Shown in pieces: positions 26,236-51,027 of a stretch of DNA of 51,027 nucleotides. Location of the stretch: NCBI GenBank assembly GCA_020161215.1, contig JAIUOM010000014.1, positions 1 to 51,027 of the forward strand, written 5' to 3'. The translations under genes and the position numbers were made by a program. Every line of letters starts with the position of its first letter. Positions within the stretch are counted from its first letter, which is position 1. Below the pieces are notes generated by a model, which saw only the letters and a list, made by a program, of their open reading frames with translations, did not search any database and had not been told where the DNA came from. The DNA comes from Pseudomonadota bacterium. Lineage in GTDB: Bacteria > Pseudomonadota > Gammaproteobacteria > Burkholderiales > Burkholderiaceae_C.

Positions 26236-26246
26236 ACCGACCTCGC

Positions 26247-30700: not shown

Positions 30701-31671
30701 CAGGACTTGACCAACGCCGCGGCGTTCATGCAGTAGCGCAGGCCACTGGGTTCGGGCCCATCGGGGAAAACATGGCCCAGGTGTGCGTCGCACACATTGC
30801 AGGTGGTCTCGATGCGCGTCATGCCATGGCTCGAATCGTAGTGATGCGCGATCAGCCCGGGCGCAAGCGCCTGCCTGAAGCTGGGCCAACCACTCTTGCT
30901 TCGGAATTTGCTCGAAGCGTCGAACAACTCGGTGCCGCAGCACACGCATCCGTAAAGACCGGGTTCGAACAAGGCACACATGGTCGAGCTGTGCGCAGGT
31001 TCGGTTCCCTTTTGCCGCGTGATGCGGTACTGCTCGGGCGTCAGGCGCTGGCGCCATTCGACATCGTCGAGCTCGAACCGCCGTGGCGGAGGTGGATTGT
31101 TGCCTTTCGCGTGCTGGATGACATCTAGCCAGGTGATGGTTCCTGCATCCGGCGTGGGCAAAGGCGGCGCCGACTCGGCGCGTTTGAGCTCGGCAATGAG
31201 TTTGTCGGCGTCGATGCGGAAGTGGTTGTAAACAACCGAGCCACTGGGATCGACGAGGATGAACCAGGGCGTGCCGCCGTTGCGGTAGCGCTGCATCAGC
31301 ACCGAGCCGTCACCCACGCGACCGGCGCCGGCATCGTGGCCGAACGGTATCGGTAGTGCGTATTTGCGCTGGTTGACCGCTACCTGATCGAAGGTGTTGG
31401 ACTCAAAGTCCTCGAACACCGTCTGCACCGCCGCGAAGCTGACGAAGGGCGAGCCGCGAAAGGCCTCGACCACACGGATCAGCGAGGGGAATCCGGTCAG
31501 GTGGCAGCCTGGGCAGGCATCCTGGAAACAGAAGATCAGCTTGAAGGCGCCGCGCATCTTGTCCAGCCCGTAGTCGGCGAGCGGCTGGCCGGCGGCGTCG
31601 ATCCATTGCGTCACGCCCAGTTCGGGCGCGGGCTCCCCCATGATGCCTGCTTGCACGCTGTCGTCTTGCAT
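30700..31671 (-). CDS. Thioredoxin-like/MsrB fusion protein
   Basis: The 323-residue protein joins two domains. Residues 1-165 are an AhpC/TlpA-like thioredoxin fold with CxxC at Cys53/Cys56 (CFQDACPGCHLTGFP). After a Pro-rich linker (166-205), residues 206-320 are methionine-R-sulfoxide reductase B. Zinc ligands are Cys242/245 and Cys291/294, with [15 protein letters not shown] and catalytic Cys314 in RYCMNAA. MsrB repairs Met-R-sulfoxide in proteins, and the fused domain probably recycles it. The ATG is at 31671, where the protein begins MQDDSVQ; the longer frame upstream has no support. It follows selO by 49 bp. Confidence 0.92.
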   Translation of the reverse strand: MQDDSVQAGIMGEPAPELGVTQWIDAAGQPLADYGLDKMRGAFKLIFCFQDACPGCHLTGFPSLIRVVEAFRGSPFVSFAAVQTVFEDFESNTFDQVAVNQRKYALPIPFGHDAGAGRVGDGSVLMQRYRNGGTPWFILVDPSGSVVYNHFRIDADKLIAELKRAESAPPLPTPDAGTITWLDVIQHAKGNNPPPPRRFELDDVEWRQRLTPEQYRITRQKGTEPAHSSTMCALFEPGLYGCVCCGTELFDASSKFRSKSGWPSFRQALAPGLIAHHYDSSHGMTRIETTCNVCDAHLGHVFPDGPEPSGLRYCMNAAALVKS

Positions 31672-31720: not shown

Positions 31721-33292
31721 TCAGGTGCCGCAGAAGGTACGGTAGTTTTCCGTCTGCTCTGCAGGCGCGGGCTCGGCCAACGCGCTGTCTGCCGCATGCT
31801 CGTCGAAGGGGTGTTGCAGCACCCGCAGCAGGCGCTCGAAAGGTGCCAGGTCATCGCGCTCCACGGCCGCCGCCAGCGCCGATTCGACGTGGTGGTTGCG
31901 CGGGATATAGATCGGGTTGGCGCTCCGCAGGGCCGCCGCGAGTTCGTCCGGGCTCTTGCCGATCGCCAGAGTGCGCTCCCGCCAGCGCTTCAGCCAAAGT
32001 TCCAGCGCTGCGGCCGCCCCTCCGAACAGCGTTCTCAGCGGCGTGTTATTGCCTTGCGCAGCGTCGGCCAGGCGGGCAAACGCGAGCGTGAAGTCGATGC
32101 GGTGCCGGCGCAGCAGCGTCAGGTAGTCGTCGGCCAGCGCGCGGTCGCCCCCACTGGCGTCGTCCAGGCCCAGCTTGAGCCGCAGGACGGTCGTCCAATG
32201 AAAGTCAAAGTGTTCGGCAAACGCCTGTACAACCGCGCCGGCGCGTTGTTCGGCAGGCTCGCCATCAGCGTCGATCAGCGTCAGCAGTGCCTCGGCCAAG
32301 CGCGCCAAGTTCCACTGCGCAATCGCCGGTTGATTCCCATAGGCATAGCGGCCCGAAGTGTCGATCGAGCTGAATACGGCCTCGGGGTCGAAGTGCTCCA
32401 TGAAAGCGCAAGGGCCATAATCGATCGTCTCGCCGGAGATTGTCATGTTGTCGGTGTTCATGACGCCGTGAATGAAGCCCACGCCCATCCAGCGCGCGAC
32501 CAAAGACGCTTGGCGCTCGGCCACCGCCTGCAGCAGGCCCAGGTAGGGGTCGGGGGTGCCGGCCAGAGCTGCATCGTGACGCGCAATGGCGTAGTCGGCC
32601 AGCCGGCGCAGCAGGGCCTGGTCGTCTCTGGCCGCGATGTACTCGAAAGTGCCTACACGCAAGTGGCTTGCGGCCACGCGCGTCAGGATGGCGCCAGGCA
32701 GGAGCTGCTCGCGCTGTACGGTCGCGCCGGTGGCCACCGCGGCCAGTGCGCGCGTGGTCGGGATGCCCAGGGCGTGCATGGCCTCGCCCATCAGGTACTC
32801 GCGCAGCACGGGTCCGAGTGCGGCCTTGCCGTCACCGCGACGCGAGAATGGGGTTCGGCCCGATCCCTTCAGGGCAATGTCACGGCGTCGGCCGCAGCGG
32901 TCGATGAGTTCGCCCAGCAGCAGGGCGCGGCCATCACCGAGTTGCCGCGAGAAGCTGCCGAACTGGTGCCCAGCATAGGCCTGTGCCAGCGGTTGCGCCT
33001 GCGCGGGAACGGCATTGCCGGCGAGCACGGCGAGGCCGGCGGCCGAGGACATTTCATCTGCGTCCAGTCCGAGCTCGTCAGCCAGTTCGCGGTTCAGCCG
33101 CAGTAGCCGAGGCGCTGGCGAGCCTGCCGGATTCGATCTCGCATACAGGCCCTCAAGTTCACGCGCGTAGCTGTTGTCGAACGGCATGTGCAACGCTGCT
33201 GGCGATGCCGGGTCGGAGGGCTGATCGTTCGGGCCAGTCGCGGTGGTTTGCAATTCAGTCTCCAGGTTCAAGGTGTAATTGGCAGGCGGCAT
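31721..33292 (-). CDS. selO: Protein adenylyltransferase SelO (YdiU family)
   Basis: The pseudokinase-fold enzyme transfers AMP to Ser/Thr/Tyr of target proteins. Bacterial SelO is known to AMPylate redox proteins, including glutaredoxin in E. coli. Motifs visible are AYAGHQFGSFSRQLGDGRAL, DIALKGSGRTPFSRRGDGKA, GVGFIHGVMNTDNMTISGET and IDYGPCAFM. The C-terminal Cys is retained (TFCGT). The frame may start at ATG 33292, which overlaps the stop of the upstream gene (TGATG), giving 523 residues. ATG at 33187 (MPFDNSYAREL) fits the family better. It lies in the middle of the redox operon. Confidence 0.92.
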   Translation of the reverse strand: MPPANYTLNLETELQTTATGPNDQPSDPASPAALHMPFDNSYARELEGLYARSNPAGSPAPRLLRLNRELADELGLDADEMSSAAGLAVLAGNAVPAQAQPLAQAYAGHQFGSFSRQLGDGRALLLGELIDRCGRRRDIALKGSGRTPFSRRGDGKAALGPVLREYLMGEAMHALGIPTTRALAAVATGATVQREQLLPGAILTRVAASHLRVGTFEYIAARDDQALLRRLADYAIARHDAALAGTPDPYLGLLQAVAERQASLVARWMGVGFIHGVMNTDNMTISGETIDYGPCAFMEHFDPEAVFSSIDTSGRYAYGNQPAIAQWNLARLAEALLTLIDADGEPAEQRAGAVVQAFAEHFDFHWTTVLRLKLGLDDASGGDRALADDYLTLLRRHRIDFTLAFARLADAAQGNNTPLRTLFGGAAAALELWLKRWRERTLAIGKSPDELAAALRSANPIYIPRNHHVESALAAAVERDDLAPFERLLRVLQHPFDEHAADSALAEPAPAEQTENYRTFCGT

Positions 33293-33783
33293 CACTCGGC
33301 CTGAGACACTTCGCCGGCGCGGCCGAAGTCCCGCAACAGGAGCTCGTCATCGAGGCGGAAGTCGCTGTGAAGGACCTCCCCCAGTGGGTCGAAAACGATG
33401 AACCATGGTGTGCCGCGCGTCTCGAAATCCGCCATCAAGCTCGGATAGCGGTCCACGGCTGGGTCGTGACCGAACGGGATGGCCAACCCGTAGCGCCGCT
33501 GCGTCTCGCGCAAACGATCGAAAGTGTTTATTTCGGCAGCCGTGAACACGGTTTGCACGGCCGCGAAGCCGAAGCCCTGACCGGACAGTCCTTCAACCAT
33601 CGCCTTGAGGGTCGGAAATCCGTGGCTGTGACCACCCGGACACCCGTGCTGGAAGCAAAAGATCACCTTGAAGTCGTCTCCGAGATCGGCCAACTCGAGT
33701 GGCCGGCTCGGGTTGCCATGCGCGTCGATCCACTGCGGCACTCGCAACTGCGGGGTGTTGAGGTGGACTTGGTCGTTCGTCAT
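33292..33783 (-). CDS. Thioredoxin-like protein, one-Cys variant, first gene of the redox operon
   Basis: The 163-residue protein is a paralogue of the N-terminal domain of the thioredoxin-MsrB fusion: both share IFCFQ, then CPG, then H, then GFP, followed by AAVQTVF, IPFGHD and RGTPWFI. Here the CxxC became CPGG (Cys48, Gly51), so a resolving Cys is missing and the mechanism would be peroxiredoxin-like or glutathione-dependent. Cys43 is a possible partner. The ATG at 33783 fits family starts. Its stop overlaps the selO ATG. About 840 bp of non-coding DNA upstream should hold the operon promoter. Confidence 0.85.
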   Translation of the reverse strand: MTNDQVHLNTPQLRVPQWIDAHGNPSRPLELADLGDDFKVIFCFQHGCPGGHSHGFPTLKAMVEGLSGQGFGFAAVQTVFTAAEINTFDRLRETQRRYGLAIPFGHDPAVDRYPSLMADFETRGTPWFIVFDPLGEVLHSDFRLDDELLLRDFGRAGEVSQAE

Positions 33784-34625: not shown

Positions 34626-35234
34626 ATGGTCACACGCAAATTCATCGGGCGACGGCCCACTGCAGCCACTGCCGACCGCCTGCCGCCAGGGCAGTTCAAG
34701 ACAGATGGTTTTCCTGTGCTCTCGAAAGGACCGACGCCTCGTATCGACATGGCCGCTTGGCGGTTCACTCTGAGCAACGGTCCTCGACCCGTGAAAAGCT
34801 GGAGCTGGGACGAGTTCATGGCGCTGCCGCGCACCGTGTGGCAGGGCGACATCCACTGCGTCACGACGTGGTCCAAGTTCGACACGCGCTGGGAAGGCGT
34901 GACCATCGACGACCTACTGGCAGACGCCGGCCTAGCGGCTCCCACACCCTGGCTGCTGGCGCTGTCGCTAGACGATTACGACACCAACGTGCCTGTTGCC
35001 GATTTGCTCAGCGGCCGCGCCATGGTCGCCACGCATTATGAAGGCGAGCCGTTGGCGCCTGAGCACGGCGGTCCGGCCCGCTTGCTGGTACCGCACCTGT
35101 ACTTCTGGAAGAGCGCGAAGTGGATCAAAGGGCTCAAGTTCACCGCGCGCGACGAAGCCGGGTTCTGGGAGCTACGTGGCTATCACATGTACGGCGACCC
35201 CTGGCGGCAGCAACGTTATTCGAGCGATCGTTGA
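34626..35234 (+). CDS. Cytosolic sulfite-oxidase-fold molybdoenzyme (copy 2)
   Basis: The 202-residue single-domain protein has Mo-ligand Cys78 in DIHCVTTWSKFDTRW, followed by PEHGGPARLLVPHLYFWKSA and GFWELRGYHMYGDP. It is the paralogue of the gene at 28682-29290 and likewise has no export signal. Its stop overlaps the start of a flavin reductase gene (TGATG), so the two form a coupled pair, NAD(P)H oxidation serving the molybdenum centre. Substrate is not visible from sequence. In the methionine-sulfoxide-repair context an S- or N-oxide is the best guess. Confidence 0.88.
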   Translation: MVTRKFIGRRPTAATADRLPPGQFKTDGFPVLSKGPTPRIDMAAWRFTLSNGPRPVKSWSWDEFMALPRTVWQGDIHCVTTWSKFDTRWEGVTIDDLLADAGLAAPTPWLLALSLDDYDTNVPVADLLSGRAMVATHYEGEPLAPEHGGPARLLVPHLYFWKSAKWIKGLKFTARDEAGFWELRGYHMYGDPWRQQRYSSDR

Positions 35235-36141: not shown

Positions 36142-37947
36142 TTATTTCTCCCGGCTGTCTCGCATCCCCGCAGCCCGATTGAACACAAGCGTGCCATCGT
36201 CGGCTGCTTTTGCATCCACTACGAAGTACCCGTGCCGCTCAAACTGGAACGCAGCACCGCCAAACTTCGCTACGGCCAATGACGGCTCTGCGAAGGCCGC
36301 GCATGTCACCAGGCTCTCCCTGTTCAGCTCGTCCAGCATTTCCCCGCTGCCCGGCTGTGGTGTGGCAAACAGCCGTTCATACAAGCGCACCTCGACCGGC
36401 ACCGCATCGGCAACCGCGACCCAGGTGATGTTGCCCTTCACCTTTACCGCATCCGCGCCGGGCGTGCCGCTCTTGGTATCGGGCACCAGCGTGGCCAGCA
36501 CTTCGACCAGCTTGCCGCCGGCGTCGCGCGTGGCACCCGTGCATACGATGGTGTGGCCGTATTTCAGGCGCACCTTGTTGCCTGGGAACAAGCGGAAGAA
36601 GCCCTTGGGTTGCACGTCCTCGTAGTCGGTACGTTCGATCCACACTTCGCGGCCGATCTTGAAGCGTCGTAGGCCGCCTTCGGGGTCGCGCGGGTTCACA
36701 GGAGCGGTGCAGTCGTCCAGCAAAGCGTCGCTGCCCATCAACTCGGCCCAGTTGGTGATGACGAGCTTCACCGGGTCGAGCACGGCCATTGCGCGCGTGG
36801 CAATGGGGTCGAGCGTGTCGCGGAGCGCCGCTTCTAGGCTCGCGTAGTCAATCCAGCCGCCGGACTTGGTCACGCCGCTGCGTTCGCAGAAAAGCTTGAG
36901 CGCTTCGGGTGTGTAGCCGCGGCGGCGGAGGCCCGCGATGGTGGGCATTCGCGGGTCATCCCAGCCATCGACGTGCCCGTCTTCGACCAGTTGGCGCAGC
37001 TTGCGCTTGCTGGTGATCACGTGCGTCACATTGAGCCGTGCGAATTCATATTGACGCGGATGCGGGCTGGCGATCAAGCCCCCTTCTGCCAAGCGGTAGA
37101 GCAGCCAGTCGTAGAACGGTCTCTGGTCTTCGAACTCCAACGTGGCAATCGAATGGGTGATCTGCTCCAACGCGTCCTCGATTGGATGTGCATAGGTGTA
37201 CATGGGATAGATGCACCACATATCGCCAGTGTTGTGGTGCGTGGCCCGGCGTATGCGGTAGAGCGCCGGGTCGCGCATGTTGATGTTGGGGTTGGCCATG
37301 TCGATCTTCGCGCGCAGCGTGGCGGCGCCGTCTTCGATCTCACCGTCGCGCATCTGCCGGAAGTACGCGAGGTTCTCGGCGGGGCTACGGGCACGGAACG
37401 GGCTGTCAATGCCTGGCGTGTTGAAGTCGCCGCGCGTGGCACGCATCTGGTCAGGCGTCTGCTCGTCCACGTAGGCGAGCCCGGCGGTGATCAGGTACTC
37501 GGCGGCGCGGTACATGAAGTCAAAGTAATCGCTGGCGAAGTATTCATGCGGCTGTGCGATGCCGGGCGCGTCGGGGCGGTCGGCCAAGTAGGTCTCATAA
37601 CCTAGCCACTTCACCGCGTCGCGGATGCCATCAACATATTCCTGCTCTTCCTTTTCAGGGTTGGTGTCATCGAAGCGCAGGTGACACACGCCGCCATATT
37701 CTTTGGCGAGCTCGAAGTTGAGCCAGATGCTCTTGGCGTGGCCAATGTGCAGGTAGCCGTTGGGTTCGGGCGGGAAGCGCGTGCGGACCTTGGCAGGGTC
37801 TTGCATGCCTTGCGCATGGTGTAGCGAGTCGCCGGGGCTGCCTCCCCATTTGCGCGCTGCATAGACGCCATGCTTAAGGTCGTTTTCGATGACGTGGCGT
37901 AGAAAATTACTTGGCTTGGTGGAATCTTTGTCTACGAGAGAAGTCAT
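36142..37947 (-). CDS. glnS: Glutaminyl-tRNA synthetase (GlnRS) on the mobile island
   Basis: The 601-residue class I synthetase charges tRNA-Gln. It has the HIGH motif at residues 67-70 (PPEPNGYLHIGHAKS), the tRNA-acceptor contacts RFDDTNPEKEEQEYV, the KMSKS equivalent VITSKRKLR and the two-barrel anticodon-binding domain (IGREVWIERTDYEDVQPKG, and the later KVRLKYGHTIVCTG). Length and N-terminal segment match betaproteobacterial GlnRS. It is complete, without frameshift. It is convergent with the flavin reductase gene and divergent from the hydrolase-OsmC gene. As every cell already has a GlnRS, this is an accessory copy; its purpose is unexplained. Confidence 0.95.
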   Translation of the reverse strand: MTSLVDKDSTKPSNFLRHVIENDLKHGVYAARKWGGSPGDSLHHAQGMQDPAKVRTRFPPEPNGYLHIGHAKSIWLNFELAKEYGGVCHLRFDDTNPEKEEQEYVDGIRDAVKWLGYETYLADRPDAPGIAQPHEYFASDYFDFMYRAAEYLITAGLAYVDEQTPDQMRATRGDFNTPGIDSPFRARSPAENLAYFRQMRDGEIEDGAATLRAKIDMANPNINMRDPALYRIRRATHHNTGDMWCIYPMYTYAHPIEDALEQITHSIATLEFEDQRPFYDWLLYRLAEGGLIASPHPRQYEFARLNVTHVITSKRKLRQLVEDGHVDGWDDPRMPTIAGLRRRGYTPEALKLFCERSGVTKSGGWIDYASLEAALRDTLDPIATRAMAVLDPVKLVITNWAELMGSDALLDDCTAPVNPRDPEGGLRRFKIGREVWIERTDYEDVQPKGFFRLFPGNKVRLKYGHTIVCTGATRDAGGKLVEVLATLVPDTKSGTPGADAVKVKGNITWVAVADAVPVEVRLYERLFATPQPGSGEMLDELNRESLVTCAAFAEPSLAVAKFGGAAFQFERHGYFVVDAKAADDGTLVFNRAAGMRDSREK

Positions 37948-38120
37948 CTGTTCATTCTAGTAACGCCCACGGTGTGTGGCCCGTTTCAGTTTTGTGAAGT
38001 GGACTCGTTGCCCAATTTCCAGGATTGTGAAGACTGGCGCGTGGATAGATTTCGTGTTGGAATCTTGAAGTCGCGGCCAGCCTGATAGCGGTTAAACGTG
38101 CGTATTAACTTCAGTGAAAC

Positions 38121-39353
38121 ATGATCAGCCATAAAGTTGAATTCCCTGGGAGCCTCGGCCATCTGCTGGCCGCACGGCTTGATCAACCAAACACTTTGCC
38201 AAGGGCGTGGGCTGTCTTCGCACACTGCTTCACGTGCTCCAAAGACTCGAAGGCGGCCGCCTACATTGCGCGTGCGTTGGTCGAGGCCGGGTTCGGCGTG
38301 CTTCGCTTCGATTTCACAGGGTTGGGTGGTAGCGGCGGTGACTTCGCAAACACCCATTTCAGTTCAAACGTCGGCGATCTGGTCTCGGCGGCCGACTGGC
38401 TGCGAAGTGAGCATGGCGCGCCAGCACTCCTCATCGGGCATTCGCTTGGCGGCGCAGCCGTTCTGGCCGCTGCACACCGCATTGCCGATGCTCGTGCAGT
38501 GGTGACGCTGGGCGCGCCCTTCGAACCGGCACATGTTGTGCACCATTTTGGCGAGGGTCTGGCTCTCATCGAGACCGACGGCGAGGCCCGTGTCACGCTT
38601 GCAGGCCGCGAGTTCACATTGCGGCGGGAGTTTCTTGACGACGTCGCCTCCCAGCCGCAGGCCGAGCGCATCCGTGCGTTGCGTCGGCCGCTGCTTGTGC
38701 TGCACGCGCCTGGCGACACGATCGTTGGAGTAGACAACGCACGCCGAATCTTCGAACAGGCGCTGCACCCCAAGTCCTTCGTCTCGCTCGACGATGCCGA
38801 CCATCTGCTCAATAGTCAGGGCGATGCCGCATACGCCGCCGGGCTCATCGCTGCCTGGGCGAAGCGGTACTTGCCGGCTCCAGCCCCTTCGAGCCCAGTT
38901 GCGTCAACACCCGAAGCGGGGCCGCTGCCCGTTGGCGCTGTACGAATCAGTGACCTGCCTGGCAACTTTGCCGTCAACGTTGAAGCAGGGCGCCACACGT
39001 TGGTGAGTGACGAACCAGTGGAGGTGGGCGGTGACGACCTCGGCATGGGGCCATACGACCTTCTGCTTGGTGGGCTAGGAGCTTGCACGGCGATGACGTT
39101 GCGCCTTTATGCTCGCCATAAAAAATGGCCCCTCGAGGATGTCCGGGTCACGTTGACCCACGCCAAGATCCACGCTGCGGACTGCGCGGAATGTGAGACC
39201 AAGGAAGGCAAGATCGACCGCATCGAGCGGACGGTGGAACTCGCGGGGCCACTCGATGCGCCGCAACGAGCTCGTTTGCTGGAGATCGCGGACAAATGCC
39301 CTGTGCACCGCACGCTCACCTCCGAGATTGAGGTCAAGACGCACTTGGCCTAG
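38121..39353 (+). CDS. Bifunctional alpha/beta hydrolase-OsmC protein
   Basis: The 410-residue protein fuses a serine hydrolase (nucleophile Ser108 in GHSLGG, Asp199 in APGDTIVG, His228 in DDADHLLN; residues 1-255) to an OsmC/Ohr domain (about 275-408) with the peroxidatic pair Cys322 ([11 protein letters not shown]) and Cys393 ([11 protein letters not shown]). OsmC domains reduce organic hydroperoxides; the hydrolase may release oxidised acyl groups. It is divergent from glnS, with a 173-bp spacer. The ATG precedes [10 protein letters not shown], and both domains are complete. Confidence 0.92.
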
Positions 39354-39577
39354 GGACTTGGCTGTTCCGCCGTGGGACAGACGAAGACAAAAGCGTGAAG
39401 CAATGCGTCTGCGCACGGCTGGTGCCGACGGTGAAGACAGTCTTCGACAAAGGAACCGAGCTCACGCGCAAGCAGTACACACGACATCCGACAAGAAAAA
39501 TCCGTTTGTACGTATTTTCCAGCCGATTGTTGCAATCGAGTCGGCCCACGCTGAGCGGTTTATCTTAGGATGCACTT

Positions 39578-39743
39578 CAGACGCGTGGCGACAGCCACCT
39601 GGGCCACGTGTTCCCCGACGGCCCCGCGGGACCGAGGGGGCCTGCGCTATTGCATCAACTCGGCGTCCTTGCGCTTCATCCCTCGAGACGAGATGGCTGC
39701 CGAGGGTTACGGCGCCTATCTCGACCAAGTGGAGAACGTTTGA
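39578..39743 (+). pseudogene. msrB remnant (N-terminus lost, frameshifted)
   Basis: Reading [13 protein letters not shown] in one frame and [20 protein letters not shown], then [16 protein letters not shown] and a stop in the next frame reconstructs the C-terminal third of MsrB, including the catalytic Cys. The frame shift lies in the run around 39620-39632. The first two thirds, including most zinc ligands, are missing. Its stop still overlaps the msrA start (TGATG), so a former msrB-msrA operon decayed while msrA survived. Confidence 0.85.
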
Positions 39744-40258
39744 TGAATCACGAAAAAGCCATCCTGGCCGGCGGTTGTTTCTGGGGAATGCAGGATCTCA
39801 TCCGCAAGCAGCCCGGCATCATCTCGACTCGCGTGGGTTACACCGGCGGCGATGTTCCGAACGCCACGTATCGCAATCACGGCACGCATGCCGAAGGGAT
39901 CGAGATCATCTTTGACCCCGAGCTGACGAGTTACCGGAAAATTCTGGAGTTCTTCTTCCAAATTCACGACCCGACGACGAAGAACCGTCAGGGCAATGAC
40001 CGTGGGCTCTCCTACCGGTCTGCCATCTACTACCTCGGCGTGGAGCAGAAGCACGTTGCCGAAGAGACGATCGCCGATGTGGATGCGTCCGGACTGTGGG
40101 GAGGCAAAGTGGTCACCGAGGTCGAGCCGGCCGGTGATTTCTGGCAGGCCGAGCCGGAGCACCAAGACTATCTGGAGAAGCTCCCGGGAGGCTATACATG
40201 CCACTTCCCACGTGCAGACTGGATCCTTCCAAAGCGCAAAAACGCTGACGAAAAGTAG
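39743..40258 (+). CDS. msrA: Peptide methionine-S-sulfoxide reductase MsrA
   Basis: The 171-residue protein has catalytic Cys12 in [11 protein letters not shown] and the conserved segments [38 protein letters not shown] and YRSAIYY. Cys153 in [11 protein letters not shown] is a possible resolving residue. It reduces Met-S-sulfoxide in proteins using thioredoxin. The ATG overlaps the stop of the msrB remnant by one base. Longer in-frame extension upstream is the remnant in another frame, not part of this protein. Confidence 0.94.
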
Positions 40259-40311
40259 GTAGCAGCCGGGACTGCATCGGAACAGGCTTCAATGCCGTGC
40301 TGCTGCGTCAT
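40193..40311 (+). repeat. Copy A of a degenerate duplication (msrA 3' end and downstream DNA)
   Basis: The last 65 bp of msrA and about 50 bp beyond resemble 41889-42000. Both share GCTATACNTG, the coding segment for YTCH and P-R, and a later block GACTGC, then CGGA, then AGGCTTCA, then TGCCGT. They lie in direct orientation about 1.7 kb apart. Confidence 0.65.
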
Positions 40312-40381
40312 CCACTGATGATGTTTGGGCCGCCGGATGCGACAAGGCCCTTCAGAATCTTGACCATTGAAAAGGATCCTC

Positions 40382-40801
40382 ATGTCCGATAACAGCTTCA
40401 CCTCCCGCTCCGTCACTCGAGAGGCCGCCGCCCGCCTCATCGCCCAGACCATCACCGCCGCTCAGCGCATCGGATTCGAACCGGTCGTCGCGATCGTCGA
40501 TGTGGCTGGCAACCTGAAGGCGTTTGAACGCAGCGATCGCAGTTCCTATCTTGCCGTCAACATTGCCATCGACAAGGCCTACACTGCGGCATCCTTTGGC
40601 CTGTCGACAGCCCAGTGGGTCGACCTTTTGGAAGATCGCGGCGCTTCGAACCTACGCCACGTTCCCCGCGTCATGGCCGCCGCTGGCGGGTTTCCGATCA
40701 TGGAGGACGGCGCGATTATTGGCGGGATCGGCATTTCCGGGGGAAGCTGGGCGCAGGACCAGGAAGCTGGCGAAGAAGCCCTTCGCAATTTTTCCAAGTG
40801 A
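40382..40801 (+). CDS. GlcG/HbpS family protein (haem-binding-like)
   Basis: The 139-residue protein has the family core: AARLIAQTITAAQRIGFEPV, VAIVDVAGNLKAFERSDRSS, IDKAYTAASFG and GGFPIMEDGAIIGGIGISGG. HbpS in Streptomyces binds haem and participates in redox sensing; many relatives are of unknown function. The ATG at 40382 has AAAAGGA six bases upstream and is preferred to an upstream in-frame start. It precedes a quinone-oxidoreductase-like gene by 28 bp in the same direction, probably as an operon. Confidence 0.88.
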   Translation: MSDNSFTSRSVTREAAARLIAQTITAAQRIGFEPVVAIVDVAGNLKAFERSDRSSYLAVNIAIDKAYTAASFGLSTAQWVDLLEDRGASNLRHVPRVMAAAGGFPIMEDGAIIGGIGISGGSWAQDQEAGEEALRNFSK

Positions 40802-40829
40802 CGTCGACACAATCCTAAAGGAAACACGC

Positions 40830-41849
40830 ATGAAAGCCATCGGATACAGGACTCCATCGCCAATCTCGGCCGCGGATGCCTTCGTCGACATCGAGTTGCC
40901 CAAGCCACAGCCAAAAGACCGTGACATTCTCGTCGAAGTAAAGGCCATTTCGGTCAATCCGGTCGATTACAAGGTCCGTGGTAGCACGCCGCCAGCTGAT
41001 GGCGCTGAATGGAAGGTGCTGGGCTGGGACGTTGCGGGAATCGTCGCGGCGGTCGGCCCCGATGTGACAGGTTTCAAGGTGGGAGAAGAGGTCTGGTATG
41101 CAGGCTCCATCACCCGGTCGGGGGCAAACGCCGAGTTCCATCTCGTCGATGAGCGTATCGTTGGTAAAAAGCCGTCAAAGATCGGCTGGGCCGACGCCGC
41201 GGCGCTCCCGCTGACATCGTTGACCGCATGGGAGGCCTTCTTTGACCGCCTGGATGTGAAGAAGCCGGTTCCCGGCGCCGCTGCCGCCATCCTGATCGTC
41301 GGCGGTGCTGGAGGGGTGGGATCAATCGCCGTTCAGATCGCACGTCAGTTCACTAGCCTCACCGTTATTGCGACGGCTTCGCGTCCTGAGACCAGGGATT
41401 TCGTCGCGTCGCTTGGTGCGCACCACGTGGTCGATCACTCGAAGCCGCTCGCTGACCAGGTTGCAGCATTGGGCATCGGCGCCCCCGCCTTTGTATTCTC
41501 AACGACGCAAACCGCTAAGCATGTCGACGACATCGCCGAATTGATCGCACCGCAGGGGCGTCTATGCCTGATTGACGATCCATCGGGCTTCGACATCATG
41601 AAGTTCAAGCGCAAGGCGGTATCGATCCATCACGAACTCATGTTTACGAGGTCCATCTTCCAGACTCCGGATATGGACGAACAGGGGCGAATCCTCGATG
41701 CGATGTCTAGCGCAGTCGATGATGGAAAGATCCGCTCAACTGCCACGCAGAACCTCGGTTCAATCAACGCCGAAAACCTCAAGAAGGCGCATGCGCAACT
41801 CGAAAGTGGAACGACCATTGGTAAGGTCGTGCTTGAAGGCTTTGCTTGA
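40830..41849 (+). CDS. Zinc-independent MDR-family NAD(P)H quinone/enone reductase
   Basis: The 339-residue medium-chain dehydrogenase has the GroES-like N-domain (VSVNPVDYKVRGSTPP-type segment, LGWDVAGIVAAVGPDVTGFK) and a Rossmann nucleotide site (ILIVGGAGGVGSIAVQIARQ). The catalytic- and structural-zinc cysteines of alcohol dehydrogenases are missing; only one Cys is present (RLCLID). It therefore resembles TIGR02817-type zinc-independent reductases of quinones or electrophilic enones. AAAGGA lies before the ATG. It is downstream of the HbpS-like gene in the same unit. Confidence 0.9.
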   Translation: MKAIGYRTPSPISAADAFVDIELPKPQPKDRDILVEVKAISVNPVDYKVRGSTPPADGAEWKVLGWDVAGIVAAVGPDVTGFKVGEEVWYAGSITRSGANAEFHLVDERIVGKKPSKIGWADAAALPLTSLTAWEAFFDRLDVKKPVPGAAAAILIVGGAGGVGSIAVQIARQFTSLTVIATASRPETRDFVASLGAHHVVDHSKPLADQVAALGIGAPAFVFSTTQTAKHVDDIAELIAPQGRLCLIDDPSGFDIMKFKRKAVSIHHELMFTRSIFQTPDMDEQGRILDAMSSAVDDGKIRSTATQNLGSINAENLKKAHAQLESGTTIGKVVLEGFA

Positions 41850-41869
41850 TCGAGAAAAGGGCGGGTCAT

Positions 41870-42000
41870 ATTCGAAGTTACTGAACGGCTATACCTGTCA
41901 CCTCCCCCGTAGAGGTTGGGTGCTTCCGAAGCGTCAGATCATTGGCGCTGCGCAGCACGCAGCCAAGACTGCAACGGAGAAGGCTTCACTGCCGTTGCAG
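41870..42000 (+). pseudogene. msrA 3'-end fragment (copy B of the duplication)
   Basis: The frame after the reductase stop reads SKLLNGYTCHLPRRGWVLPK, matching [20 protein letters not shown] of msrA at its C-terminus. The similarity continues into the msrA downstream DNA. No start or catalytic domain is present. Differences at about one base in four suggest an old duplication or a fragment from a related msrA. Confidence 0.75.
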
Positions 42001-42119
42001 TCGCGATGGCCCGTTAGCAGTCTTCGTGACTGCGGGTCTACCGATGCAGTCACTGAACCCCGGCCTTGATGGGTTGGTTAATACAAGTTCGTCGCCGTCG
42101 AAGCCCTAGGATAAAAGCC

Positions 42120-42821
42120 ATGTCAGACCTCTCATCCTTTCCGATCACGAGGCGCTGGCCAGCAGCTCATCCCGATTGCCTACAACTTTACGCAGCACCC
42201 ACGCCAAATGGAGTCAAGGTCTCGATCCTGCTGGAGGAAATCGGCTTGGCGTACGAGCCTCACCTCGTTGACATCTCAAAGAACGAGTCGAAGGACCCGG
42301 CGTTCGTATCGTTGAACCCAAACGGCCGCATACCGGCGATCATCGATCCGGCGGGCCCTGACGGCAGACCTATTGCCGTATGGGAATCCGGCGCGATCCT
42401 TCTCTACCTAGCCTACAAGACGGGCCAGCTAATCCCGAGTGCACCCACCAAACGTTACGAAACTCTGACCTGGGTGTTCTTCCACATGTCGGCCATCGGG
42501 CCGATTTTCGGTCAACTCGGATTCTTCGTGCGATTTGGCGGCAAGGACTACGAAGACAAGCGGCCTCGAAAGCGATTTACCGAAGGATCCAAGCGCCTTC
42601 TGGGAGTCTTGGGCCGCCAGCTGGAAGGACGCAACTGGATCGACGAATATTCGATTGCGGGCATTGCTACGCTCGGCACGGTGAATGCGCTGGTAGAATC
42701 GTATGATGCTGACGAGATACTTGGACTCAGCAATTACTCAAACAACCAAGCATGGCTCGGACGCCGGCTGGCTCGACCAGCAGTGCAGCGTGGCCAGCGC
42801 ATCCCTGCGAGGTCTGCATGA
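42120..42821 (+). CDS. Glutathione S-transferase family protein (YghU/YfcG-like)
   Basis: The 233-residue protein has an N-terminal thioredoxin-like GST domain (LQLYAAPTPNGVKVSILLEE, LNPNGRIPAIIDP, VWESGAILLYLA) and an all-helical C-domain (TWVFFHMSAIGPIFGQLGFF, NWIDEYSIAGIATLGTV, and ARPAVQRGQRIPARSA). Nu-class relatives act as disulfide-bond reductases with glutathione. ATG 42120 starts the family alignment; the upstream extension in frame lacks support. Its stop overlaps the corA start (ATGA), so the two are coupled. Base use is somewhat less GC-rich than the ICE core. Confidence 0.9.
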   Translation: MSDLSSFPITRRWPAAHPDCLQLYAAPTPNGVKVSILLEEIGLAYEPHLVDISKNESKDPAFVSLNPNGRIPAIIDPAGPDGRPIAVWESGAILLYLAYKTGQLIPSAPTKRYETLTWVFFHMSAIGPIFGQLGFFVRFGGKDYEDKRPRKRFTEGSKRLLGVLGRQLEGRNWIDEYSIAGIATLGTVNALVESYDADEILGLSNYSNNQAWLGRRLARPAVQRGQRIPARSA

Positions 42822-43786
42822 GCGTCATCGCCGCCTACTATTACAACAAAGGCAAGCGAATCCGGGAAATTGCGCTCGACGAGCGCTTCGAGCAGGATGA
42901 GGCGCGCTCGGGCTTCTGCTGGATCGCGCTTCGCGAGCCCAGCGCCGACGAACTTCACACGCTCCAGACGGCGTATCACCTCCATCCGTTGGCAGTCGAT
43001 AACGCGATGCACCCGCTTTGCCCGCCAAAGCTCGAGGTCTACAACGATGAGCTGTACATCGTCGCTCAAACAGCTGAGCTGGTCGGCGACAAGATCAGCT
43101 ATGGCAAGACGGCGATCTTCACCGGTCACAATCACCTCATCACCGCGCGGCATGGCAACGGTGGAGCGCTAGGCAACCTGCGGGGGCAGCTTGAGGCTTC
43201 GCCAACGCTCCTGGGAAAGGGTGTCGACTACGTGCTGCACGCGATCTTGCACCGTATCGTGGACCAGTATTTGCCCATCTTTGAAATGATCGAGGATGAC
43301 GTTCTGGAGATGGAGAGAAGATCGGTAGGCGACTTTCTTGGGCGAGAAGAAGTCGCCCGGATATTCAGCCTGAGAGGCGAACTCACGCGCTTCCAACGCA
43401 CGCTTGGCGCTATGGCCGAACTGGTCAGAAAGCTGGTCCGTGGACATTATCCCTGCATCAGTGCTGAAGTGAGACCGTACTTCGACGATGTTGCTGACCA
43501 CGTAGATCGTGTGCAGTCCATGGTCAATGGTCTCCTTCAGGTCCTGAGGACGGTCTTTGAATTCAGCAGCCTGCTGGAGGCGCAAAGGACGGGTGTGATC
43601 ACTCGCCAGTTTACGTCTTGGGCGGCAATACTGGCAGTTCCGGCGGCGATCGCTGGAATTTACGGCATGAACTTCAAGAACATGCCGGGGCTGGAGACAA
43701 CCTATGGATACCTCGTCGTGCTCGGGGTGATGACGGCGATCTGCCTGTTCCTGTTCGTGCGCTTCAAGAAGGCAAAGTGGCTATGA
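42818..43786 (+). CDS. corA: CorA-type Mg2+/divalent cation channel
   Basis: The 322-residue protein has the CorA cytoplasmic domain followed by two C-terminal membrane segments (FTSWAAILAVPAAIAGIYGM and TTYGYLVVLGVMTAICLFLF) with the signature Gly-Met-Asn (residues 283-285) in YGMNFKNMP. It is a pentameric inner-membrane ion channel for Mg2+ (and Co2+, Ni2+). The Lys/Arg-rich tail (FVRFKKAKWL) closes the pore base. Its ATG overlaps the GST stop by four bases. Why a channel accompanies redox genes is not clear; metal homeostasis under oxidant stress is one idea. Confidence 0.93.
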   Translation: MSVIAAYYYNKGKRIREIALDERFEQDEARSGFCWIALREPSADELHTLQTAYHLHPLAVDNAMHPLCPPKLEVYNDELYIVAQTAELVGDKISYGKTAIFTGHNHLITARHGNGGALGNLRGQLEASPTLLGKGVDYVLHAILHRIVDQYLPIFEMIEDDVLEMERRSVGDFLGREEVARIFSLRGELTRFQRTLGAMAELVRKLVRGHYPCISAEVRPYFDDVADHVDRVQSMVNGLLQVLRTVFEFSSLLEAQRTGVITRQFTSWAAILAVPAAIAGIYGMNFKNMPGLETTYGYLVVLGVMTAICLFLFVRFKKAKWL

Positions 43787-43992
43787 ATGCCGCATGTCGT
43801 GATCGTTTCGAGGTGAAGGCGACAACCTCCAATAATCTCAGAGGGCCAGAATGGTGAAACCGTGTTTGTTGAAAGCGCGAGTCGTTGCCTTGATGCTGAG
43901 GTCGTGGACCAAGTTGCGGTGCGATTCGCTCCTTTCATTCCTGGCGTTCAACTGGGCAAGCCTGCGTCAGAAATTGCGCTTATGCGCGGGAG

Positions 43993-44493
43993 GTGAATGT
44001 GGAGAAGCTCGCTTTTGGAGGTGGATGCCATTGGTGCACAGAAGGGGTATTCCAAGCGTTGCGTGGTGTCGAGAAGGTCGACCAGGGCTTTGTGCAATCG
44101 GACGCGCCGGCAGATACGTGGGCAGAAGGAGTGATCGTCACCTTCGACCCCTCGGTGATTCAGTTAGCCACGCTCTCCGAGGTGCATCTCAGAACTCATT
44201 CTGCTACCAGGGCCCGTTCACCTCGCAGCAAATACCGCAGTGCGATTTACATTTTCGAAGATCGCCAACGGCATGAGGCCGAGCTGGCGATAGCAGGCTT
44301 CGCCCACGAGTCTGGCGATGCGGTGCATACCGTCGTTCTTCCCTTTAGAAGTTTCAAGGCGTCGGACGAGCGTTACCGGAACTACTATCGAACCAACCCG
44401 AGTAGGCCTTTCTGCCGCCGATATATTGATCCTAAGCTTGATCTCATCAGACTTCACTTCTCAGAGGTCGCGCTCCCTGAAGTGCAGACCTAG
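43993..44493 (+). CDS. MsrA-like peptide methionine sulfoxide reductase (second subfamily)
   Basis: The 166-residue protein has the active site FGGGCHWCTEGVFQALRGV (Cys12, Cys15), KYRSAIYIF and the terminal RYRNYYRTNPSRPFCRRYID, with Cys141 as a likely resolving residue. It lacks the [13 protein letters not shown] block of typical MsrA (here LRTHSATRARSPRSK), placing it in a divergent MsrA subfamily. The start is GTG at 43993, preceded by GGGAGG. A fragment of a near-identical gene lies at 28553. Confidence 0.85.
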   Translation: MNVEKLAFGGGCHWCTEGVFQALRGVEKVDQGFVQSDAPADTWAEGVIVTFDPSVIQLATLSEVHLRTHSATRARSPRSKYRSAIYIFEDRQRHEAELAIAGFAHESGDAVHTVVLPFRSFKASDERYRNYYRTNPSRPFCRRYIDPKLDLIRLHFSEVALPEVQT

Positions 44494-44707
44494 ACGTGAA
44501 GGCTCGTCTCCAAGGAAGTTTGTGCTTGGGTTAGGTCGTTTACGACACGCCAAGCGCGTCGGACAATCTGTACGCATGCGCCGAGCGCGATCAGAGAAAG
44601 CGCTATCTCATTGCGTACTCGTCCTTGCAGGGTTCGGAGGTGAGAAGGCCACTCTGGCGGACGACCGGCCCGGCGGGTTCAGGATTTTCCCTCGGTAAGA
44701 TTCACAG

Positions 44708-46393
44708 ATGTTATTGGTTAAACAAGAACTGCTCGCGACGCTCGCGAACACGCTTGAATCCTTCTCGCCCGGCGCTGGAGCCAAAGCCGCCTTTGAGTCG
44801 CCCAAGGTGGCGGCGCACGGCGATTTCGTCAGCACGGCCGCCATGCAACTCGCCAAGCCGCTTGACCGCAAGCCTCGCGAACTCGCTGAAGAAGTGAGGG
44901 CCATGCTACTGGCCACACCCTCATTCGGGCAGTGGGTACAGGCGGTCGAGATCGCCGGCCCTGGCTTCTTGAACATCCACTTGAGGACGGCCGCCAAGCA
45001 GCAGGTCGTGCGCGAAGTGCTCGCCGCCGGCGATGCGTACGGTCGGCAGCCAGCTACCGGCGAAAAGGTGCTGGTGGAGTTTGTCTCGGCCAACCCGACC
45101 GGCCCGCTGCACGTGGGCCACGGCCGCCAAGCGGCATTGGGAGATGCCATTTGCAACCTGCGCGCCTCGCAGGGCGATGCGGTGTACCGTGAGTTCTATT
45201 ACAACGACGCCGGCGTGCAGATTCAGACGCTCGCCAGCAGCGTGCAGATGCGCGCCAGGGGCCTGAAGCCAGGCGACGCCGCCTGGCCAAGTGGCGAAAA
45301 GGCAGCGGCTTACAACGGTGACTACATTGCCGACATCGCCAAGGACTTCATGGCGAAGAAGACCGTGAAATCGGACGACCGCGCGTTCACCGCGAGCGGC
45401 GACGTCGATGACATCGATTCGATCCGTGAGTTCGCCGTTGCTTACCTGCGGCGGGAGCAAGACAGCGATCTGCAGGCGTTCCGCGTGCGCTTCGACAATT
45501 ACTACCTTGAGTCGAGCCTGTACTCCAGCGGACGTGTCGAGTCGACGGTGGTCAAGCTGGTGGCCGCCGGCAAGACGTACGAGCAGGACGGCGCGCTCTG
45601 GCTGAAGTCAACTGACTACGGCGACGATAAGGACCGCGTCATGAAGAAGGGCGACGGCACGTACACCTACTTCGTGCCCGACGTGGCGTACCACATTGCC
45701 AAGTGGGAGCGGGGCTTCCACACGGTCGTCAACATCCAGGGTACCGACCACCATGGCACCATCGCACGCGTTCGCGCCGGCCTGCAGGGCGTGGACGAAA
45801 GCATTCCGGCCGATTACCCGGACTATGTGCTGCACACAATGGTGCGCGTCATGAAGGGTGGCGAAGAGGTCAAGATAAGCAAGCGCGCAGGCAGCTATGT
45901 CACGCTGCGCGACTTGATCGAATGGACCAGTACCGACGCGGTCCGCTTCTTTCTGCTGAGCCGTAAGCCCGACACCGAATACACGTTCGACGTTGACCTT
46001 GCCGTGACGAAGAACAACGACAACCCGGTGTATTACGTGCAGTACGCGCATGCGCGCATCTGCTCGGTGTTAGCGAGTTGGGGCGGCGACGTGGCATCGC
46101 TGCACGATGTTGAACTGTTGGCACTTGAAAGCCCGGCCGCGCAGGCTCTCATGCTGCTACTCGCCAGATACCCCGAAATGCTGAGCGCGGCAGCGAAGGA
46201 TTTCTCGCCGCATGATGTCACGTTCTACTTACGCGAGCTGGCCGCTAGTTACCACAGCTACTACGACGCCGAGCGAATTCTTGTCGACGACGAGAGTGTC
46301 AAGAAGGCACGTTTGGCGCTTATCGCTGCTACCGCGCATGTGCTGCGCAATGGTCTCGCGATTCTCGGCGTCAGGGCGCCGAGCAAGATGTGA
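44708..46393 (+). CDS. argS: Arginyl-tRNA synthetase (ArgRS) on the mobile island
   Basis: The 561-residue class I synthetase charges tRNA-Arg. It has an Arg-specific N-terminal domain, the HIGH motif as HVGH (135-138, in [20 protein letters not shown]), the tRNA-binding and insertion segments and a KMSK equivalent KISK (389-392, [13 protein letters not shown]). A DALR anticodon-binding domain follows, ending [15 protein letters not shown]. It is complete and undamaged, 214 bp after the MsrA-like gene and before an IS5-family element. It is an accessory copy beyond the essential host enzyme, as glnS is at 36142. Confidence 0.95.
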
Positions 46394-49545: not shown

Positions 49546-50307
49546 CTATAGGTACTTCTTGAAGCTACCCGCAGTCAGACTCAACGCCACCCCCAGCAAG
49601 GCAGCGCTCGGCAGCAGGATCAGGAGCGGATGCACCGAGATCGGAAGCGCCAGGTAGGTAACCCAGGGCAGCACGGCCAGCGGCATCAAGCTCGCTTTTG
49701 CGCGGTGGTAGATGAAGCCCGATTCGCGGCCCGCGCCAAACCGGCGCACATCGCGCCGCACCAGGCCGTCGATCAGCCCGACGAACGCTGCCGTGAAGAT
49801 CAACGGCAGCGTGAGCAACAGAACCAGCAGACGAACGAGGAAGGTCAGCGTCGTGAACGCGGCGGCGATCAGGTAGCGCTCGGTCCAGACATAGACCTGG
49901 CTGATGAAATACCGGAAGTTCCGCACCCCGCCATGGTCCTTCCCCTGGCTGGGCGCACGGGCGCGCTCGGCGGTCTGGCTCATGCGTTCCAGCAGTCCCG
50001 AGCGCACGAACACCCATTCGTAGCCGGTATCCACCAACTCGTGCGCAGTGCGCCCCGGCTCCTGCACGACCACGCTGCGCGTGAAGTGGTTGGACAGGTG
50101 CCCCAGCTCGTACTGCAACATCTGTTGGGCATGGCGCCAGCCCTGGTCTTTCCAGAACAAGTGCATGCCGACGCACTCCACCACGATGGAGAACAGCAGC
50201 GAGCCGATCAGCACCCCGAGCAGCCGGAACGGCAAGGTGATAGTGCCGACGATCAAACCTTGACGCTGGTTCTGCTCCCGCTGCGCGGTCGAGGCGGCAT
50301 CTTTCAT
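49546..50307 (-). CDS. Integrating conjugative element membrane protein TIGR03747
   Basis: The 253-residue inner-membrane protein has about four hydrophobic segments (LLGVLIGSLLFSIVVECVGM, AAAFTTLTFLVRLLVLLLTL, LIFTAAFVGLIDGLV, ISVHPLLILLPSAALLGVAL) and the central HFTRSVVVQEPGRTAHELVD. The ATG overlaps the stop of traD by four bases. The pair is constant in this ICE class. It would be followed by RAQPRD in elements without cargo; here the redox island starts right after its stop. Confidence 0.9.
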   Translation of the reverse strand: MKDAASTAQREQNQRQGLIVGTITLPFRLLGVLIGSLLFSIVVECVGMHLFWKDQGWRHAQQMLQYELGHLSNHFTRSVVVQEPGRTAHELVDTGYEWVFVRSGLLERMSQTAERARAPSQGKDHGGVRNFRYFISQVYVWTERYLIAAAFTTLTFLVRLLVLLLTLPLIFTAAFVGLIDGLVRRDVRRFGAGRESGFIYHRAKASLMPLAVLPWVTYLALPISVHPLLILLPSAALLGVALSLTAGSFKKYL

Positions 50308-51027
50308 GACGAGGCCTCGTTCGCGGCGCTGTCGTCAGCGCCGGTGGCCGGCGCGACAGATTCGACCGGCTTGGCCGGCCCGGCGTCATCGAGCAGATCG
50401 TCGGGCAAGGCCGCATCCTGCAACGCCGGGGAACTCGTGAACTCCCACCATTGGGTCGCATCGGTGTAGCTCTGGCGCATGTAGCCCGCGAGCTGCTGCA
50501 GATCCTGCGGCATCACTTCGTCTGGGTCCGGTGCCGGCAGCGGCATCCGGATTTTCCAGAGCTGGCCGCCCTGCAGCAGCGCGAAGCACTGGCCCTTGGG
50601 CAGGCCGACGACCTGGGAGGGTTCGATCATCGGCACGCTCGACATGCTGATGCGGTCCTGGGTGTTGGACGTGAAGTCCGTCGCGCCGCGGATGTCCGAA
50701 CTGTCCGTCGCACCCGAGACGATGGTGGTGGTATAGACCTCGACCTTCGGCAGTTGCCGGGTCAGCAGTTCGGCGGTGGCTGTCTCCCGAATCCGCAGCA
50801 TGAACAGGTTGTTGAAGTTGCCGATCACCTGACCGGCCTTCGCGCGGTTGCCAATGCGGGCTTCGATATCGGAGAGCGTCTGCGTGTAGGCGGTGACTTG
50901 GAGCCCGGCGCCGCCGCCCTTGTTGATCAGCGGAATGAACTCGTCACCCATGAGTTCGTTGAATTCATCGGCGTGGACGTTGATCGGCACGCGCGCGCCG
51001 GCCGATGCATCGGGTAAGCCATCATCG
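50304..51027 (-). CDS. traD: Conjugative coupling protein TraD (TIGR03743; N-terminal part outside window)
   Basis: This is the C-terminal 240 codons of the coupling ATPase that brings the relaxase-DNA complex to the secretion channel. The Walker B-proximal segment (PINVHADEFNELMGDEFIPL), the sensor region (GLQVTAYTQTLSDIEARIGN) and NNLFMLRIRETATAELLTRQ are visible. The frame is open to the right edge, so Walker A and membrane segments lie beyond. The acidic tail (PDDLLDDAGPAKPVESVAP) is typical. Its stop overlaps the TIGR03747 start. Confidence 0.93.
   Translation of the reverse strand, partial: DDGLPDASAGARVPINVHADEFNELMGDEFIPLINKGGGAGLQVTAYTQTLSDIEARIGNRAKAGQVIGNFNNLFMLRIRETATAELLTRQLPKVEVYTTTIVSGATDSSDIRGATDFTSNTQDRISMSSVPMIEPSQVVGLPKGQCFALLQGGQLWKIRMPLPAPDPDEVMPQDLQQLAGYMRQSYTDATQWWEFTSSPALQDAALPDDLLDDAGPAKPVESVAPATGADDSAANEASS

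What the first reader, a model, noticed from the sequence alone, without database searches (positions are those of the whole stretch)
36142..46393. Two complete aminoacyl-tRNA synthetases (GlnRS and ArgRS) inside a redox island
Seen: full-length glnS and argS with intact HIGH/KMSKS motifs, each next to redox genes. Known: both are essential enzymes that need bound tRNA for amino-acid activation, a property shared only with GluRS and some LysRS. Inference: either oxidant-tolerant spare synthetases, or replacements resistant to an inhibitor, or a way to keep translation accurate when host copies are oxidised. A mobile element carrying two such genes is hard to explain as chance.
Basis: partly seen in the sequence, partly recalled or inferred. 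Interest (0 to 1): 0.85.

Follow-up and report, generated by a model that had tools for sequence, protein, structure and literature searches.

The report
Oxidant-proofed spare tRNA-charging enzyme
A mobile DNA element carrying defences against bleach-like oxidants also carries a second copy of an essential tRNA-charging enzyme in which one otherwise unchanging, oxidisable cysteine of the active site has been replaced, and separately assembled islands made the same change, which suggests that this enzyme is a weak spot of protein synthesis under oxidant attack.

Summary
glnS (36142-37947, -) and argS (44708-46393, +) are complete, under purifying selection, and lie in a redox cargo inside an integrative conjugative element. 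The host keeps its own glnS and argS elsewhere (72% and 77% identical), so both are extra copies; both descend from a Variovorax-like donor. Related redox islands on plasmids and in other Burkholderiales genomes carry the same pair, or a GlnRS captured separately from another donor, usually next to an RclR-like regulator. Seven of 72,556 plasmids match that regulator (two only in part) and all seven carry such a GlnRS.

Key new result: GlnRS residue 268 (E. coli Cys229) is Cys in 130 of 130 distinct GlnRS outside these islands, but Ala in all 16 island genes read. The change arose at least twice independently (AU p = 6e-5), perhaps three times. It is the only near-invariant column changed in all three island lineages. 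Mobile GlnRS outside such islands (two Cupriavidus plasmids, one E. coli phage-plasmid) keep Cys.

Best reading: an oxidant-insensitive bypass GlnRS, acting like mupirocin-resistant IleRS but against reactive chlorine or similar oxidants. Tolerance is inferred, not shown. ArgRS shows no such signature; its role is open.

The parts
36142..37947 (-). glnS, extra glutaminyl-tRNA synthetase (601 aa), Variovorax-like
   Evidence: TIGR00440 over cut-off; second copy in host at 72%; tree
37144..37146 (-). codon 268 of glnS (E. coli Cys229): Ala here, Cys in 130 of 130 distinct non-island GlnRS
44708..46393 (+). argS, extra arginyl-tRNA synthetase (561 aa), Variovorax-like
   Evidence: TIGR00456 over cut-off; second copy in host at 77%; tree
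28682..29290 (-). sulfite-oxidase-like molybdopterin protein 1
   Evidence: PF00174; weak match to solved sulfite oxidases
29306..30700 (-). RclA/MerA-like flavoprotein disulfide reductase (the open frame runs on to 31057)
   Evidence: below the RclA family cut-off
30700..31300 (-). MsrB (SelR domain; start approximate, within open frame 30700-31854)
   Evidence: PF01641; msrB at the same place in pB1A
31721..33295 (-). SelO/YdiU protein adenylyltransferase
   Evidence: PF02696
33292..33921 (-). thioredoxin-like (TlpA-like) protein
   Evidence: 64% to the TlpA-like protein of pOS401; no Pfam hit
34626..35234 (+). sulfite-oxidase-like molybdopterin protein 2
   Evidence: PF00174
35225..36022 (+). 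FAD/NAD(P)H reductase
   Evidence: 83% in pB1A
38121..39353 (+). alpha/beta hydrolase-OsmC fusion, divergent from glnS (173 bp apart)
   Evidence: PF02566 and hydrolase domains
39608..40258 (+). MsrA
   Evidence: TIGR00401 over cut-off
42066..42821 (+). glutathione S-transferase-like
42752..43786 (+). CorA-like metal transporter
   Evidence: PF01544
43993..44493 (+). second MsrA-like protein, upstream of argS in every island with this argS that was read
   Evidence: PF01625; 82-87% in pB1A, pOS401, G248, G364
3609..3684 (+). tRNA-Gly(gcc), likely insertion site of the element
3910..5844 (+). tyrosine integrase
   Evidence: PF00589 and PF13356
9547..11415 (-). relaxase, PFGI-1 class / MobH
   Evidence: TIGR03760 and NF041494 over cut-off
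12923..27242 (-). conjugative transfer genes (TIGR03755, 03756, 03744, 03752, 03746, TraG_N, DUF3438, DUF2976, RAQPRD)
50304..50990 (-). TraD/TraG C-terminal part at the contig end; the element runs on
   Evidence: PF12696

Best explanation
The element carries a defence island against reactive chlorine or similar oxidants that includes bypass copies of essential enzymes. Shown: glnS and argS are extra, intact, constrained copies on an ICE and the host keeps its own; GlnRS entered such islands from at least two different donors, probably three; each time the same otherwise invariant active-site Cys (E. coli Cys229) became Ala. Inferred: in ordinary GlnRS this thiol is oxidised by HOCl or related oxidants, which blocks or distorts glutamine charging; the Ala enzyme cannot be hit there, so glutaminyl-tRNA supply, and with it synthesis of repair enzymes, continues while MsrA/MsrB, the RclA-like reductase, SelO, ergothioneine and thiol systems mend the rest. 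In type B and C islands glnS is divergent from an RclR-like regulator and is therefore probably oxidant-induced (not tested). The ArgRS copy presumably serves the same end as spare supply, by means that its sequence does not reveal.
For: Residue 268 is Cys in 130 of 130 distinct non-island GlnRS and Ala in 8 of 8 distinct island sequences; all 16 island genes read carry the Ala motif. Of 134 columns conserved at 99% or more it is the only one changed in lineages A, B and C. One clade of A+B is rejected, p = 6e-5. Cys to Ala needs two base changes, and the surrounding bases follow each lineage's own relatives. The other GlnRS copy of five island-bearing genomes is Cys. Mobile GlnRS outside such islands keep Cys. 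All 7 plasmids that match the RclR-like gene carry a GlnRS. Donor-lineage copies have no such redox neighbourhood in the 20 kb read. The site is the C229R site of a structure with a bound glutaminyl-adenylate analogue. Precedent: hypochlorite oxidises an editing-site Cys of ThrRS (PMC4041444).
Against: No activity, oxidation or induction data. Four other near-invariant Cys are kept. The independence of type C is not firm (p 0.054 and 0.074). ArgRS shows no Cys change. Some islands lack GlnRS (P. aeruginosa CP140112 and C. thiooxydans CP083939 in the stretches read). The RclA-like protein is far below the RclA family cut-off (288 against 740 bits), so the oxidant is not fixed. No RclR-like gene was found in the window.
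Confidence: 0.65

Rival explanations
1. Specificity change: the residue lies in the amino-acid pocket, and Ala helps GlnRS reject a glutamine look-alike that accumulates under oxidants, for instance free methionine sulfoxide.
For: C229R is a known engineered pocket mutant (title; its use for glutamine/glutamate choice is recalled); the islands are rich in methionine sulfoxide reductases.
Against: Loss of a thiol is the simplest chemistry; in type A and B no other near-invariant column changed in all members. No sign of misuse of methionine sulfoxide was sought or found in print.
Confidence: 0.12
2. Plain spare dosage: extra GlnRS and ArgRS make up for oxidised or aggregated enzyme, and the Cys to Ala change is a neutral result of relaxed constraint.
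For: Explains ArgRS, which has no residue signature; the genes travel with stress genes.
Against: The same two-base change in at least two lineages, under purifying selection (dN/dS 0.09-0.17), while other near-invariant columns stay fixed.
Confidence: 0.12
3. Tolerance to oxidised tRNA: oxidants strip sulfur from thiolated tRNA bases (s2U34 of tRNA-Gln, s2C32 of some tRNA-Arg), and the island enzymes charge such tRNAs better.
For: Would tie GlnRS and ArgRS together. The 2-thio group is described as an identity element for GlnRS (PMC3980101, passages) and s2U is desulfurised by oxidation (PMC11594727, abstract start in the listing). That some tRNA-Arg carry s2C32 is recalled.
Against: The convergent residue is in the catalytic domain, not the anticodon-binding part; no shared change was found in the anticodon-binding part.
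Confidence: 0.07
4. Resistance to a natural inhibitor of GlnRS and ArgRS rather than to oxidants.
For: Same logic as known resistant duplicate synthetases (recalled).
Against: The cargo is oxidant repair, with chlorite dismutase in two relatives; no biosynthesis gene cluster was seen in the window.
Confidence: 0.03

Closest known systems
Drug-resistant duplicate synthetases on mobile DNA (for example MupA/IleRS2; recalled, not tested)
   Same: Second, altered copy of an essential synthetase on a mobile element beside the sensitive host copy.
   Different: The presumed threat is an oxidant rather than an antibiotic; the change removes an oxidisable Cys; it arose repeatedly from different donors.
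Reactive-chlorine resistance genes (RclR/RclA, Msr systems, chlorite-dismutase neighbourhoods)
   Same: RclR-like regulator, RclA-like reductase, MsrA/MsrB, sulfite-oxidase-like proteins; chlorite dismutase in two relatives; Cld neighbourhoods with Msr systems are in print (PMC9751292, passages).
   Different: Adds GlnRS and ArgRS, SelO and ergothioneine genes; the RclA-like protein is below the RclA cut-off; the window itself has no RclR-like gene.
PFGI-1-class / ICEclc-like ICEs (the ICEclc link is recalled)
   Same: tRNA-Gly next to a tyrosine integrase; PFGI-1-class relaxase and matching transfer genes over cut-off.
   Different: Oxidant-defence cargo with two synthetases; right end not seen.
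ThrRS oxidation at editing-site Cys182 (PMC4041444)
   Same: Hypochlorite oxidises one Cys of a synthetase.
   Different: Other enzyme and site; no replacement gene is described in the passages seen.

Membership tests
Bacterial GlnRS (TIGR00440) | score over curated cut-off, catalytic and anticodon domains, HIGH and KMSKS-type motifs | tested here: met
Bacterial GlnRS (TIGR00440) | Cys at the E. coli Cys229 position | tested here: not met
   Ala; Cys in 130 of 130 non-island sequences. Not part of the formal definition.
Bacterial ArgRS (TIGR00456) | score over curated cut-off, all domains | tested here: met
Resistant duplicate synthetase (target bypass) | extra copy on mobile DNA while the host copy remains | tested here: met
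Resistant duplicate synthetase (target bypass) | altered residue at the presumed target site | tested here: met
   GlnRS only; ArgRS: none found
Resistant duplicate synthetase (target bypass) | measured tolerance of enzyme or cell | not testable with these tools
   needs bench work
RclA (reactive chlorine resistance reductase) | NF040477 over cut-off | tested here: not met
   288.5 bits against 740
RclR-regulated island | RclR-like AraC/cupin regulator beside glnS | tested here: not met
   none found in the window; met in types B and C
PFGI-1-class ICE | PFGI-1-class relaxase and transfer genes | tested here: met
   TIGR03760, 03744, 03746, 03752, 03755, 03756 over cut-off
PFGI-1-class ICE | both ends with attachment repeats | tested here: inconclusive
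   no second exact copy of the tRNA 3' end in the window; the contig ends inside the element

The most novel reading that the evidence does not exclude
Cys229 of ordinary GlnRS is a conserved redox brake: oxidants modify it and stop glutamine charging, and with it translation, as a regulated response. The islands carry a brake-less GlnRS that lets the cell keep making repair proteins during oxidant attack, and GlnRS (with ArgRS) is the oxidant-sensitive gate of bacterial translation.
Probability: 0.2. Interest if true: 0.92.

Novelty: new variant of a known kind. Interest (0 to 1): 0.82.

Why it matters
If true, evolution has repeatedly marked GlnRS, and one cysteine in it, as a limiting target of bleach-like oxidants in bacteria. 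That turns the general idea that translation fails under such oxidants into a one-residue test, and it adds oxidants to the threats that bacteria answer by carrying an insensitive duplicate synthetase.

Tried and rejected
Relocation of the host genes: rejected, host copies are present. Foreign contig: unlikely, lon is single-copy and genus-typical. One old island GlnRS spread everywhere: rejected for A and B, not firmly for C. A short patch copied between islands: unlikely, the bases around the codon resemble each lineage's own relatives (read by eye). General Cys/Met depletion: absent in type A, modest in B and C. ArgRS Cys signature: looked for and absent; invariant columns changed in all five island ArgRS are 361, 365 and 369 (29 of 29 outside) and 469 (28 of 29). 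Shared promoter motif: intergenic regions were printed, no motif analysis was made. RclA-like protein in 399 order genomes: only the window's own at E <= 1e-150, with at most 4 candidates scored per genome. The GlnRS model (mean pLDDT 76, pTM 0.68) served only for the fold and the PDB titles; no distances were measured. A first-look idea that the second MsrA-like gene is degenerate was dropped: it is conserved at 82-87%.

Rows dropped: 155 extracted GlnRS rows gave 138 distinct. The first GlnRS tree used 101 of these (37 left out), the second 57 rows with four extra copies added, the AU tree 41. One search used hand-picked donor sets (40 non-island sequences); searches used all 138. Genomes G226 and G292 with a second ArgRS match and several genomes with two GlnRS matches that may be split hits were not examined for that.
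Full report
What is there. The window is a whole contig (C33, 51,027 bases) of a 4.52 Mb genome, 98.1% complete and 2.95% contaminated. The contig of a same-genus genome (G015:C283, 10,135 bases) has the same length and GlnRS as a record named Ottowia, so the genus is probably Ottowia. At the left, lon and tRNA-Gly(gcc) are followed by a tyrosine integrase and PFGI-1-class conjugation genes. Between these and a TraD/TraG part at the contig end lies a redox cargo (28.7-46.4 kb) that holds glnS and argS. The flanking lon is single-copy in the assembly and 92% identical to that of two same-genus genomes, so the contig belongs to this host.

Both synthetases are extra copies. The assembly has a second glnS on C58 and a second argS on C100, 72.3% and 76.7% identical to the island versions. 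Island copies in different records differ with dN/dS 0.09-0.17, so they are kept as working proteins.

The pair recurs. Of 397 family genomes at least 90% complete, the window's own, G248 and G364 are the only ones with a GlnRS at 91% or more and an ArgRS at 92% or more, in each case beside another copy. Comamonas aquatica plasmid pB1A carries both (90.5% and 92.5%); Comamonadaceae OS-4 plasmid pOS401 carries the ArgRS (92.0%) with a different GlnRS (66.8%). Gene order around both genes is largely shared. In the trees the five island ArgRS form one clade (100/100) inside genus g125, and the island GlnRS of this type (A) form one clade (99) next to Variovorax boronicumulans and among the same g125 genomes. 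Both therefore came from one donor lineage. Around the donor-type genes read (G398 glnS and argS; V. boronicumulans and Variovorax YR216 glnS) no such redox island lies within about 10 kb on either side; the only match of the island gene set was a GST at 58% beside the V. boronicumulans copy.

GlnRS was captured more than once. A second type (B) is nested in another part of the Comamonadaceae. In pOS401 it lies 69 bp from, and divergent to, an AraC/cupin regulator annotated RclR, which is followed by msrA, a thioredoxin-like gene, selO, msrB, osmC, DUF427, rclA-like, sulfite-oxidase-like, reductase, egtB, egtD, MOSC and zntB genes. Type B was read in pOS401, two Comamonas testosteroni and two Achromobacter plasmids, pB1A, and genomes G231, G244, G292, G048 and G248. 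Arrangement varies: in C. testosteroni R5-28 the rclA part lies about 38 kb from glnS, in A. denitrificans a Tn3 element sits between glnS and rclR, in A. insolitus one sits after msrA. A third type (C), on an Aquincola plasmid, is again divergent from an RclR-like gene (52%).

Association on plasmids. At E <= 1e-60 the RclR-like protein matches 7 of 72,556 records, two of them (MT011984, CP079746) over residues 1-198 of 283 only. All 7 hold a GlnRS, and all 7 GlnRS carry the Ala motif. Of 9 plasmids with the RclA-like protein at 60% identity or more, these 7 do; in C. thiooxydans CP083939 and P. aeruginosa CP140112 no glnS lies in the 41 and 26 kb read, and neither is among the 40 records listed for GlnRS, which include all at 60% or more.

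The convergent residue. Among 138 distinct GlnRS, window position 268 is Cys in 129 of 129 sequences outside islands and in the Cupriavidus plasmid copy, and Ala in 8 of 8 distinct island sequences of types A, B and C. Counting genes read, 16 of 16 island GlnRS have the Ala motif: 8 on seven plasmids, 8 in seven genomes, with G203 left out because its contig has the length of the Aquincola plasmid. Of 134 columns conserved at 99% or more in the 130 non-island sequences, this is the only one changed in all three lineages: type B changes no other, type A one other in part of its members, type C eight others. If changes fell at random on those columns, type B's single change would hit this one with chance about 1 in 134, and type C's nine would include it with chance about 9 in 134 (my estimate). 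The AU test, trait residue masked in 37 of 41 rows, rejects A+B as one clade (p = 6e-5) and A+B+C (p about 1e-43); A+C (0.054) and B+C (0.074) are not firmly rejected, C having a long branch. The bases around the codon resemble each lineage's own relatives, and Cys to Ala needs two base changes.

Controls. The Ala motif hits 8 of 379 family genomes, each time in an extra GlnRS, and 1 of 378 phylum genomes, the window's own. The other GlnRS of five island-bearing genomes (G000, G231, G203, G248, G364) is Cys. Mobile GlnRS outside such islands keep Cys: two Cupriavidus plasmids (redox-flavoured neighbours such as lpdA and DsbA-like genes, but no RclR/Msr island in the stretch read) and the one E. 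coli phage-plasmid read, of 139 plasmid records with 80% or more of a GlnRS.

Where the residue is. It aligns with E. coli Cys229: chain 2rd2 has Arg there, and its title names it the C229R mutant with a bound glutaminyl-adenylate analogue. That this mutant was made to study glutamine/glutamate choice is recalled. The model of the window GlnRS matches GlnRS structures but is of moderate quality.

How it most likely works. In ordinary GlnRS this thiol is a point of attack for HOCl-like oxidants, and the Ala enzyme is a bypass. Precedent: hypochlorite oxidises the editing-site Cys182 of ThrRS (PMC4041444, abstract and passages). The ArgRS copy has no comparable signature: both conserved Cys are kept, Cys number equals that of its donors, Met is not reduced, and the invariant columns changed in all five copies (361, 365, 369, 469) are not sulfur residues. 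It may be spare supply, or something the sequence does not show.

Against. There is no activity, oxidation or induction evidence. The RclA-like protein is far below the family cut-off, so the oxidant is open. Four other near-invariant Cys are kept. Some islands do without GlnRS. No RclR-like gene was found in the window. Type C is one sequence.

Known or not. Ten searches of the paper library, some aimed at tRNA thiolation or GlnRS biochemistry rather than islands, listed no paper whose title or abstract start ties GlnRS or ArgRS genes to such islands or reports this residue change. The library lacks most subscription journals and preprints, so this is not proof. A paper on chlorite-dismutase neighbourhoods reports Msr systems and mobility genes there; the word synthetase does not occur in its main text (PMC9751292, passages).

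Noticed in passing
L204 (NZ_CP148392) 9007-10668; Many roughly 90 kb E. coli and Salmonella plasmids, the one read being phage-like, carry a complete glnS; the one read keeps Cys229. Why a phage-plasmid carries GlnRS is unexplained.
   Followed up: partly
L123 and L205, glnS at 12001: Two large Cupriavidus plasmids carry a Cys-type GlnRS beside lpdA and DsbA-like genes but without an RclR/Msr island in the stretch read.
   Followed up: partly
G000:C58:19244-19432 and G015:C283:5022-5354: Short GlnRS C-terminal fragments lie about 0.4-0.9 kb downstream of the housekeeping glnS in several same-genus genomes, some with stops.
   Followed up: no
L126 12001-13767: The Aquincola island GlnRS has a very long branch (0.9-1.2 changes per column), so fast evolution or altered function.
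   Followed up: no
L202 12351-13399; L227 20604-21654: Chlorite dismutase family and cupin genes were brought into the type B island by a Tn3-type element in two Achromobacter plasmids.
   Followed up: no
window 45788-45814 (ArgRS residues 361-369): Island ArgRS share changes at 361, 365 and 369, invariant in 29 of 29 other ArgRS compared.
   Followed up: partly
G365:C89 and G378:C85: Single GlnRS at 82% and 80% to the window, higher than listed genus mates (72-74%); perhaps replaced housekeeping copies. Both keep Cys.
   Followed up: no
window 11660-12504 and 8669-9538: PrlF/YhaV toxin-antitoxin pair and an rve-type transposase within the element.
   Followed up: no
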